From Paracoccaceae bacterium (GTDB lineage Bacteria > Pseudomonadota > Alphaproteobacteria > Rhodobacterales > Rhodobacteraceae): DNA of 64,000 nucleotides. A program made the translations under genes and the position numbers. Positions 9,776 to 11,643 of the stretch are shown piece after piece; the stretch's first letter is position 1, and each line of letters opens with the position of its first letter. Below the pieces are notes generated by a model. The model was given only the letters and a program-made list of their open reading frames with translations. It did not search any database and had not been told where the DNA came from. The stretch covers positions 88,523 through 152,522 of the forward strand of contig NVUX02000076.1 in the NCBI GenBank assembly GCA_002402045.2. Direction: 5' to 3'.

Positions 9776-9787
9776 GAATCATGATTC
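9776..9787. promoter_or_regulatory. 12-base palindrome at the 5' end of the TruA-kinase gene
   Basis: GAATCATGATTC is a perfect palindrome. It covers an in-frame ATG at 9781 that could be an alternative start of the kinase. If translation begins at 9832 instead, the palindrome would sit in the leader as a possible operator. No regulator can be assigned. Confidence 0.25.
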
Positions 9788-9831
9788 GTTTTGGCCTTGA
9801 CCGCAAGGAAAATCAGCTTAGAACCCTAGAA

Positions 9832-11643
9832 ATGCCCCGCTTTACGTTCAAACTTGAATATGACGGCAGCCGTTTTGATGGCTGGCCCGAACTGCGTGCG
9901 GCCTTTGAATCCGCGTTTATTACAAACAACACCCCCGCCAGCAATCTTACGGTGGCCGAACCCACCGAGCCCGGCGTGCATGCCAGCAGCCAAATCGTGC
10001 ATCTGGACCTGCCAGAGGATCACAACCCGCTAACACTTAAGGCCAATCTTGGTAAGTTTTTGCGCGGCACAGCGCTGGCGATTGTGGGTGCCAGCACCGT
10101 GCCCGATGATTTTGACGCCAGTAAAGCCGTAGAGCGGCACTATACCTATCGGCTATTTTCCCGCCGCGCCACGCTGACCTTCAACAAAGGCACCATGTGG
10201 CGCATTGATCATCCACTAGATATCCGCGCCATGCGCGAGGCGGCGCACTACCTTATAGGCAAGCATGATTTCACCAGCTTTTGCGCTAGCGGCAGCCCCA
10301 CCCAGCTATCCGAGCTGCGCATTGAAAGCTCGGCCCATTCCAGCGGCACCGAGATCCGGCTGCACTTTCGCGCGCCCTCCTTTGGCCCCGAGCAAATCAG
10401 GCGCATTGTGGCCCTGCTGGAGCGCATTGGTGCCGGCGTGCACCCGCCCGAAATTATGCGAGAGGTGCTAGAGGCCCGCGCCCTTGGCCCAAATGCCCCC
10501 ATCGCCCCGCCGCGCGGGCTTTATCTTGATGATATCCGCTACTCAGATGCCATTATGCAATCGGCCCACCTGCCGCTGGAGCCAACGCCCCACCTTGCCA
10601 GTGGCATCGGCGCGGCCATGCTGGAGCAAATGCCGCTGCCGCTGTTGGTGATTACACGAAAGGGCCGCGTGGCCTATGCCAACCAGTTTGCCTATGATTT
10701 ACTGCCAAACCTCATTATCCGCCAGCATTTCTCCGAAACGCTAGACGCGCCAAAGTTTACCAAAGCCGTGCAGGCCGCGATTGAAAGCGGCAAAACTGGC
10801 AAGGTGCGGTTTAGCCTCACCGAAGGGCCGGAGCGGTTTTTTGTGGCGCATATCGGCTTGCTGCCGGCGGGGTCTGAATTTGGCAAATCTATCCGGGTGA
10901 TTGCCGCGATTGAGGAGCGCACGACGATGCTGAAATCCGAGCAAATGCGCTCTGATTTCATTGCCAATGTGAGCCACGAGTTGCGCACACCATTAGCTAC
11001 AATACTTGGCTATATCGAAACCCTGCAAGGCCATGCCAAAGATGACCCAGAAGCGCGGGAGCGGTTTTTGAAGATTATGGCCAAGCAGGCAGGCCGGATG
11101 CAAAACCTTGTTAATGACCTGATGTCGCTCAATAAAATTGAGATTGAAGAGCATAACAGGCCTCTCGCCCCTTGCGATTTAATTGCGCTGGCGTCTGAAG
11201 CGATTGCCGCCGTGCAGCCCTTGGGCGAGCGCCTCGGCGCGTCGGTTGTTTCTGAATTACCAGCCGAAATGCCCCGCATTCGCGGCGATCATGAACAGTT
11301 GCTGCAAGTGCTGGTAAACCTGCTGGAAAACGCATTTAAATACAGCGCTCAAAGCCAGCCCGTGCGCTTGTTTGCGGCCCCGCCTGACGCTGAGCACATT
11401 GGCCAAATCGGCCTATCAGTGCAAGATTTTGGCCCCGGTCTTGCCCCAGAGCACCTTAGCCGCCTAACCGAGCGGTTTTATCGCGTCAGCGTGGCCAAAA
11501 GCCGCGACCAAGGGGGCACGGGGCTGGGGCTGGCGATTGTGAAGCACATTCTAAATCGGCACGAGGGGGCGCTCGACATCCAATCAAAACTGGATGAAGG
11601 CAGCACCTTTACCGTTTGGCTACCGGGATTTGCGGAGGCCTGA
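9832..11643 (+). CDS. Degenerate TruA pseudouridine-synthase fold fused to a PhoR-type sensor histidine kinase
   Basis: One unbroken 603-residue frame. Residues 1-237 align along the whole of TruA (tRNA pseudouridine 38-40 synthase): FKLEYDGSRFDGW, PGVHASSQIVHLDL, PDDFDASKAVERHYTYRL, GKHDFTSF, EQIRRIVALLERIGAG and PPRGLYLDDIRY. The catalytic RTDAGVH motif is PTEPGVH here, so the essential Asp is Glu46 and the Arg is Pro. The Arg after DFTSF is Cys151, the HH pair before VRN is PE, and the GWQRQ loop is deleted. Residues about 258-365 form a PAS-like domain. HisKA has its phosphoacceptor at His382 (VSHELRTP), and the HATPase has N box (LLENAFKYS), G1 (DFGPGLAP) and G2 (GGTGLGLAI). There is no signal peptide or transmembrane helix, unlike ordinary PhoR. 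The start at 9832 is chosen because MPRFTFKLEYDG matches TruA N-termini; an in-frame ATG at 9781 is the alternative, and neither has a good ribosome-binding site. No response regulator is adjacent. Confidence 0.88.
   Translation: MPRFTFKLEYDGSRFDGWPELRAAFESAFITNNTPASNLTVAEPTEPGVHASSQIVHLDLPEDHNPLTLKANLGKFLRGTALAIVGASTVPDDFDASKAVERHYTYRLFSRRATLTFNKGTMWRIDHPLDIRAMREAAHYLIGKHDFTSFCASGSPTQLSELRIESSAHSSGTEIRLHFRAPSFGPEQIRRIVALLERIGAGVHPPEIMREVLEARALGPNAPIAPPRGLYLDDIRYSDAIMQSAHLPLEPTPHLASGIGAAMLEQMPLPLLVITRKGRVAYANQFAYDLLPNLIIRQHFSETLDAPKFTKAVQAAIESGKTGKVRFSLTEGPERFFVAHIGLLPAGSEFGKSIRVIAAIEERTTMLKSEQMRSDFIANVSHELRTPLATILGYIETLQGHAKDDPEARERFLKIMAKQAGRMQNLVNDLMSLNKIEIEEHNRPLAPCDLIALASEAIAAVQPLGERLGASVVSELPAEMPRIRGDHEQLLQVLVNLLENAFKYSAQSQPVRLFAAPPDAEHIGQIGLSVQDFGPGLAPEHLSRLTERFYRVSVAKSRDQGGTGLGLAIVKHILNRHEGALDIQSKLDEGSTFTVWLPGFAEA

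What the first reader, a model, noticed from the sequence alone, without database searches (positions are those of the whole stretch)
9832..11643. A TruA pseudouridine-synthase fold is fused to a histidine kinase, and its catalytic residues are gone
Seen: one frame carries a complete TruA-like domain (1-237) joined to PAS, HisKA (His382) and HATPase. Known: TruA requires the Asp of RTDAGVH. Here it is Glu46, the neighbouring Arg is Pro, the DFTSF-R is Cys, the HH before VRN is PE, and the GWQRQ loop is deleted. The kinase motifs are intact. Inference: the TruA fold was kept as an RNA- or ligand-binding sensor domain while losing catalysis, giving a kinase that might respond to tRNA or another RNA. 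I know of no described TruA-kinase fusion.
Basis: partly seen in the sequence, partly recalled or inferred. Interest (0 to 1): 0.93.

Follow-up and report, generated by a model that had tools for sequence, protein, structure and literature searches.

The report
Dead tRNA enzyme replaces PhoR anchor
In this bacterium the only PhoR-type (phosphate-response) sensor kinase found in the genome carries, where related kinases have a membrane anchor, a copy of the tRNA-modifying enzyme TruA with its active-site residues lost, which is likely to serve as a cytoplasmic input domain; a sister lineage has the same fusion with those residues intact, and in two of its genomes it is the only TruA that was found.

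The parts
9832..11643 (+). TruA-like/PAS/HisKA/HATPase fusion gene (603 aa plus stop), the only PhoR-type kinase found in the genome
9832..10566 (+). pseudo-TruA half, residues 1-245: TruA fold without catalytic residues
9883..9885 (+). place (Trp18) after which the loop matching the tRNA-contacting GWQRQ loop is deleted
   Evidence: E. coli loop role from PMC10631681
9955..9981 (+). former catalytic motif, AEPTEPGVH (residues 42-50) where the intact relatives have AGRTDTGVH
10312..10374 (+). beta-hairpin, residues 161-181; A168, H169, S170 and T173 are invariant in all 27 fused proteins aligned and variable in 12 stand-alone TruA: candidate interdomain contact (inference)
   Evidence: secondary structure
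10387..10392 (+). Pro186-Glu187 where the active sequences have His-Asn (HNQVR)
10567..10929 (+). junction (HLPLEP..HLASGIGAAMLEQMPLPLLVI) and PAS domain, residues 246-366; unfused PhoR has its membrane segment before the matching GFGRAMLEQ(M/L)PLPLLVI
10945..11142 (+). HisKA/DHp, residues 372-437, phospho-acceptor His382 (10975-10977); the stretch 368-440 is 68.5-83.1% identical to 79 unfused PhoR-like hits
11284..11625 (+). HATPase_c, residues 485-598
9797..9824 (+). promoter-like TTGACC-16 bp-TAGAAC ending 7 nt before ATG 9832 (predicted leaderless start); TTGAC(C/G) is present in 7 of 7 relatives' upstream DNA, also in the 4 where the 17-codon upstream frame is broken
   Evidence: the -35/-10 reading is inference

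Best explanation
The gene is a PhoR-type histidine kinase that carries, where its relatives carry the membrane anchor, a TruA fold without catalytic residues, which would act as a cytoplasmic dimerising input domain and is predicted to signal through the PAS domain and His382 to the response regulator PhoB. Shown here: the predicted fold, the loss of the catalytic and loop residues, absence of a hydrophobic membrane segment, one branch for the fused kinases sampled, purifying selection on the dead half, a fused-only conserved hairpin, a sister lineage with the active-site residues intact, and an orphan phoB elsewhere in the genome. Inferred: TruA (a homodimer) was fused once to PhoR at the native truA locus beside ycjX; while it was the cell's working TruA, its dimer already did the structural work of the lost membrane helices; in the window's lineage, which has a separate truA in most genomes seen, catalysis was dispensable and decayed, whereas fold and kinase contact stayed under selection. 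Untested: the signal. Absence of Pst and PhoU in some members suggests that input no longer comes only from PhoU on the PAS domain.
For: Fold. Kinase is PhoR-like: TIGR02966 1.3e-80 over 263-595; 20 fused v 39 unfused split 100/100; DHp identity to 79 unfused hits mean 76.6% v CA 51.6%, PAS 42.5%, as expected if the PhoB partner is kept. Anchor: no 19-residue Kyte-Doolittle window of 1.6 or more in the window protein (2 of 40 relatives have a marginal one), against 76 of 79 unfused hits with one in the first 80 residues. Only PhoR-type kinase: other kinases at most 32% identical in G000 and, at E <= 1e-18, in 7 further fusion genomes, apart from a contig-end fragment in G398. Intact sister: 6 of 40 fused clusters; in NORP251 and SZUA-151 the fusion is the only PF01416 gene found and is followed by pstS-C-A-B-phoU-phoB. 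Selection: TruA-half dN/dS 0.099 (window-G206), 0.134 (window-GLR160), 0.09-0.29 over the 21 pairs within the dead lineage; kinase core 0.06-0.25, one pair undefined. Of 122 columns conserved in 18 active sequences, 67 are kept in 21 dead ones and 13 fixed (95% or more) in one other state, 5 of these being deletions. Hairpin: highest fused-minus-stand-alone conservation, reached by 0 of 2000 shuffles. PhoB over cut-off in G000, 75.5% and 70.3% identical to those of the two intact-lineage loci; Pho-box-like site before phoB in 4 of 6 dead-lineage genomes.
Against: No experiment. Dimerisation is assumed from TruA homodimers (8q70 title); only a monomer was modelled. The linker 243-269 and the PAS are predicted poorly (mean pLDDT 71.5, pTM 0.45), so no interdomain contact was seen. 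The kinase misses the curated cut-offs of the PhoR models (270.9 v 334.2). The hairpin may be kept partly by common descent. dS is near saturation in most pairs. In the TruA tree the two fused groups join with 92/79 only, and a tree holding dead halves with the lineage's separate truA scored 4.1 log units better than the free one (p-AU 0.567), so the order of fusion and duplication is open. One dead-lineage member (P0029) still has the Asp, though not the loop. Two dead-lineage MAGs (G399, G402) show no second truA: incompleteness, or 'catalysis dispensable' fails there. PhoB was not found in G402.
Confidence: 0.55

Rival explanations
1. RNA sensor: the dead TruA half still binds tRNA or another RNA and gates the kinase.
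For: TruA fold kept; fixed new residues near the former active site (P182, R191) could make another RNA site; the intact-site sister fusion would meet tRNA in the cell. Some active stand-alones are themselves net negative (to -7), so charge alone does not exclude it.
Against: Loop matching an RNA-contact loop deleted, conserved Arg/His/Asn lost, mean net charge negative in the dead lineage. E. coli contacts from PMC10631681 passages.
Confidence: 0.15
2. Small-molecule sensor: the emptied active-site cleft binds a nucleotide or another phosphate-containing metabolite, a cytosolic readout of phosphate status that makes Pst-PhoU dispensable.
For: 3 of 7 dead-lineage genomes, one of them 99% complete, lack a stand-alone PhoU and PstB over cut-off while the fused kinase and, in two of the three, PhoB stay; H50, Y104 and much of the core remain invariant; 13 columns are switched to one other state.
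Against: No pocket or ligand was tested; the same data fit a protein-contact role.
Confidence: 0.2
3. Passive relic: the TruA half is a solubilising or dimerising remnant without signalling role.
For: It changes faster than the kinase half: 94 of 245 invariant columns against 195 of 355 in 21 dead-lineage proteins.
Against: dN/dS well under 1, fused-only hairpin, 13 columns switched to one other state in at least 95% of 21.
Confidence: 0.1
4. Assembly or prediction artefact joining truA and phoR.
For: None beyond rarity: among 394 genomes sampled in the family only the two of the window's genus gave a full-length match.
Against: 40 clusters from several databases, 19 of them aligned with the same junction or its close variant; nine loci in MAGs.
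Confidence: 0.01

Closest known systems
TruA, tRNA pseudouridine(38-40) synthase (PF01416; E. coli 1dj0/2nqp)
   Same: Fold over 239 residues at 1.9 A; 67 of 122 columns conserved in active relatives
   Different: No catalytic Asp, no GWQRQ loop, no HN pair, four-residue deletion after F150; fused to a kinase; separate intact-looking truA in the genome
PhoR, phosphate regulon sensor histidine kinase (TIGR02966), as in unfused relatives of the family
   Same: PAS-HisKA-HATPase, DHp 68.5-83.1% identical; PhoB in the genome
   Different: TruA fold instead of membrane segment; gene away from pst and phoB in the window's lineage; below curated score
Intact-site TruA-PhoR fusions (P0035-P0040; NORP251, SZUA-151)
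   Same: Same domain order and junction, same kinase branch
   Different: Active-site residues complete; no other TruA found in two MAGs; in front of pst-phoU-phoB
TruA-like chains of trypanosomatid mitoribosome assembly intermediates (6sga, called mt-SAF11; 9hny)
   Different: Ribosome assembly by title, no kinase; whether it is catalytically dead was not checked here

Membership tests
TruA (tRNA pseudouridine synthase I) | TruA fold | tested here: met
TruA (tRNA pseudouridine synthase I) | catalytic Asp in RTDxGVH | tested here: not met
   Glu46 in PTEPGVH
TruA (tRNA pseudouridine synthase I) | tRNA-contacting GWQRQ loop, and the HN pair of active relatives | tested here: not met
   loop deleted, PE at 186-187
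TruA (tRNA pseudouridine synthase I) | pseudouridine formation at tRNA 38-40 | not testable with these tools
   needs an assay
PhoR histidine kinase | curated PhoR model score | tested here: not met
   TIGR02966 270.9 v 334.2 bits
PhoR histidine kinase | phylogenetic place among PhoR of the family | tested here: met
   fused branch beside unfused relatives, 39 rows, tree rooted at the midpoint for drawing only; three unfused relatives sit in pst operons
PhoR histidine kinase | N-terminal membrane segment | tested here: not met
   none in the window protein; 76 of 79 unfused have one
PhoR histidine kinase | linkage to pst/phoU/phoB | tested here: not met
   gene lies between mraZ and a lipoprotein/yceD/rpmF/plsX cluster (gene names by my reading); pst on C63 and phoB on C43. 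Met in the intact-site sister
PhoR histidine kinase | PhoB phosphotransfer | not testable with these tools
   needs purified proteins

The most novel reading that the evidence does not exclude
A tRNA-modifying enzyme became the sensor half of the cell's master phosphate kinase. In the intact lineage one protein is both the cell's only TruA and its PhoR, so tRNA binding or translation load sets the Pho response; in the window's lineage the enzyme then died and turned into a dedicated pseudoenzyme sensor that freed PhoR from membrane, Pst and PhoU.
Probability: 0.25. Interest if true: 0.92.

Novelty: new variant of a known kind. Interest (0 to 1): 0.8.

Why it matters
Sensor domains of histidine kinases come from many folds, but my searches found no report of an RNA-modifying enzyme as one. 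Here both stages sit in sequenced lineages: an intact-site TruA-PhoR that seems to be the cell's only TruA, and a dead one kept by selection. That makes a direct test possible of how an enzyme becomes a sensor, and of whether tRNA modification and phosphate signalling are coupled. It also shows a PhoR-type kinase without membrane anchor, and in some members without Pst or PhoU, which bears on what signal PhoR really needs.

Tried and rejected
Assembly error: rejected by 40 recurrent clusters. Longer start at 9781 (620 aa): not favoured, because the 17-codon extension is broken in 4 of 7 loci (L067, L069, L072, L073) while the DNA stays similar. PhoU-kinase fusion P0117: looks to me like a frame-crossing prediction artefact, left out of counts. 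TruA tree as proof of one fusion event: inconclusive (92/79; holding dead halves with the separate truA gave a better likelihood by 4.1, p-AU 0.567; separate truA with intact fusions p-AU 0.462). Pho-box scan: 7 exact sites in 4 genomes against 2 for the reversed control. The box is recalled, not from a call, and was loosened once after a first look, so its exactness is partly fitted; under the first form (up to 3 mismatches) L059 had one site and the window three, none near the fusion. One G000 site lies inside a long frame and is taken as chance. Literature on tRNA modification with PhoB (0 papers), pseudoenzyme sensors (2 listed, neither on point by title and abstract), NORP251 (0 papers) and TruA as chaperone (listing only) led nowhere; two searches gave the two papers searched for passages. 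Residue roles not quoted from PMC10631681 are recalled and not relied on.

Full report

Not chance, not an artefact. The protein search listed 40 fused clusters, P0001-P0040 (only the 7995 candidates sharing most words were scored, best 120 listed). A second search limited to the TruA half of P0036, among proteins of fusion length, gave 90 hits: 38 carry HisKA and all 38 are from the same 40; other partners included a formyltransferase domain, a DegP-like protease and one receiver domain. Among 394 genomes of the family, a full-length match was found only in the two of the window's own genus, and among 390 genomes of the order only in the window's genome (E under 1e-200). A pattern scan of the species genome collection gave nine loci, all titled Rhodobacteraceae or Rhodobacterales MAGs.

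Two lineages. Of the 40, six (P0035-P0040) keep AGRTD(T/A)GVHA, GWQRQ, FRS and H-N-Q-V-R; of the other 34, 31 have Glu or Gly at the Asp position, one (P0029) has Asp but not the loop, and in two 523-residue entries my pattern did not find the motif. In the intact lineage, NORP251 (L065) and SZUA-151 (L066) have the fusion directly before genes that read as pstS, pstC, pstA, pstB, phoU and phoB; a third MAG (L068, G397) shows the same gene order behind a kinase half whose TruA part is cut off by the contig end. PF01416 searches found only the fusion in the first two and nothing at all in the third. In L065 the gene two upstream is ycjX-like, which also lies beside truA in 22 of 27 stand-alone family loci and in 4 of 4 separate truA genes of the window's lineage. 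So in L065 the fusion sits at the native truA place; L066 has transposase-like genes there instead.

The window's lineage. Seven genomes were reached (G000, G206 = OB9 = G400, G396, G398, G399, G401, G402). In G000, G206, G396, G398 and G401 the fusion lies beside the mraZ/rsmH cell-division cluster; short contigs leave G399 and G402 open. A separate truA was found in G000, G206, G396 and G401, a fragment in G398, none in G399 and G402. phoB scores over cut-off in 6 of the 7 (not G402) and is not on the contig of a PhoU gene. In G000 the pst genes and phoU are on another contig, without phoR or phoB beside them. G206 (99% complete), G399 and G402 have neither PstB over cut-off nor a stand-alone PhoU, only a roughly 550-residue PhoU-domain protein. 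The fused kinase is the only PhoR-type kinase found: the next best is at most 32% identical in G000 and, at E <= 1e-18, in seven other fusion genomes, apart from a contig-end fragment of 72% identity in G398 (G399 and G402 not searched).

Kinase half. In a tree of 20 fused and 39 unfused kinases the fused ones are one side of a branch with 100/100. The junction is sharp: unfused PhoR reads a hydrophobic N-terminus, then GFGRAMLEQ(M/L)PLPLLVI; the fusion reads TruA, then HLPLEP..GIGAAMLEQMPLPLLVI. No hydrophobic segment remains in the window protein (2 of 40 fused show a marginal one), against 76 of 79 unfused, 65 of which have two. The DHp, which sets partner choice (established knowledge), is far more conserved to unfused PhoR (mean 76.6%) than CA (51.6%) or PAS (42.5%), so PhoB is the expected partner. 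In E. coli and Salmonella PhoU acts on the PhoR PAS domain (PMC9239213, passages).

TruA half under selection. Nei-Gojobori dN/dS (my script) in the TruA half is 0.099 (window-G206, dS 0.83) and 0.134 (window-GLR160, dS 0.54), and 0.09-0.29 over the 21 pairs of seven dead-lineage genes, many with dS near saturation; the kinase core gives 0.06-0.25, one pair undefined. In the one intact pair the TruA half is 0.059. Of 122 columns conserved in 18 active sequences, 67 are kept in 21 dead ones, 13 are fixed in another state (5 of them deletions), 42 relaxed. Mean net charge goes from +5.0 (6 intact fusions) to -2.1 (21 dead); the 12 stand-alones average +1.7 but range from -7 to +8, so charge alone is weak evidence. 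The strongest fused-only signal is the hairpin 161-181: A168, H169, S170 and T173 invariant in 27 of 27 fused and variable in 12 stand-alones; the 10-residue window from 164 has the highest contrast, reached by 0 of 2000 column shuffles. Common descent adds to this, since the fused proteins are one branch.

Pho circuit. A recalled Pho-box form, loosened after a first look, has an exact site before phoB in G000, G206, G398 and G401, not in G396 or G399, and in NORP251 between fusion and pstS. None lies before the fusion gene in the window.

Mechanism. I think a homodimeric TruA took the place of the membrane helices in one event and gave a soluble PhoR. As long as it was the cell's TruA, both activities stayed. 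In the lineage with another truA the catalytic and RNA-contacting parts decayed, while fold and a probable contact hairpin were kept as input and dimer module of a cytosolic PhoR-PhoB pair. Shown: predicted structure, losses, context, selection. Inferred: dimer role, order of events (the TruA tree does not decide it, and its best constrained form even joins dead halves with the separate truA), contact hairpin. Untested: signal, enzyme activity of either lineage, partner.

Novelty. No paper was found on a TruA or pseudouridine-synthase kinase fusion (open-licence library only, listings seen). I file it as a new variant of a known kind, histidine kinases with a sensor taken from another protein family; the presence of both stages makes it unusually testable.

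Noticed in passing
window 9781-9831: TTGACC...TAGAAC element 7 nt before the ATG, similar as DNA in relatives even where the upstream frame is broken: a predicted leaderless promoter
   Followed up: partly
L018 6611-8795 (G000 C63): Frames read as pstC (314 aa) and pstA (415 aa) are shorter than in L062, which has an unfused PhoR (458 and 594 aa)
   Followed up: no
P0155: Receiver domain in front of an intact-looking TruA in one 440-aa protein: a second TruA/two-component link
   Followed up: no
P0156, P0158, P0159, P0160: TruA fused to a DegP-like protease with PDZ domains; the one read, P0156, has an intact-looking RTDTGVH motif
   Followed up: no
L140 1501-2039 (G206 C44): Exact Pho-box-like site before a gene that reads as an ArsC-like low-molecular-weight phosphatase, in a genome without PstB over cut-off or stand-alone PhoU
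   Followed up: no
G398:C204:1-522: A second 72%-identical piece of the fused kinase overlapping the first in query range: contamination or a second copy
   Followed up: no
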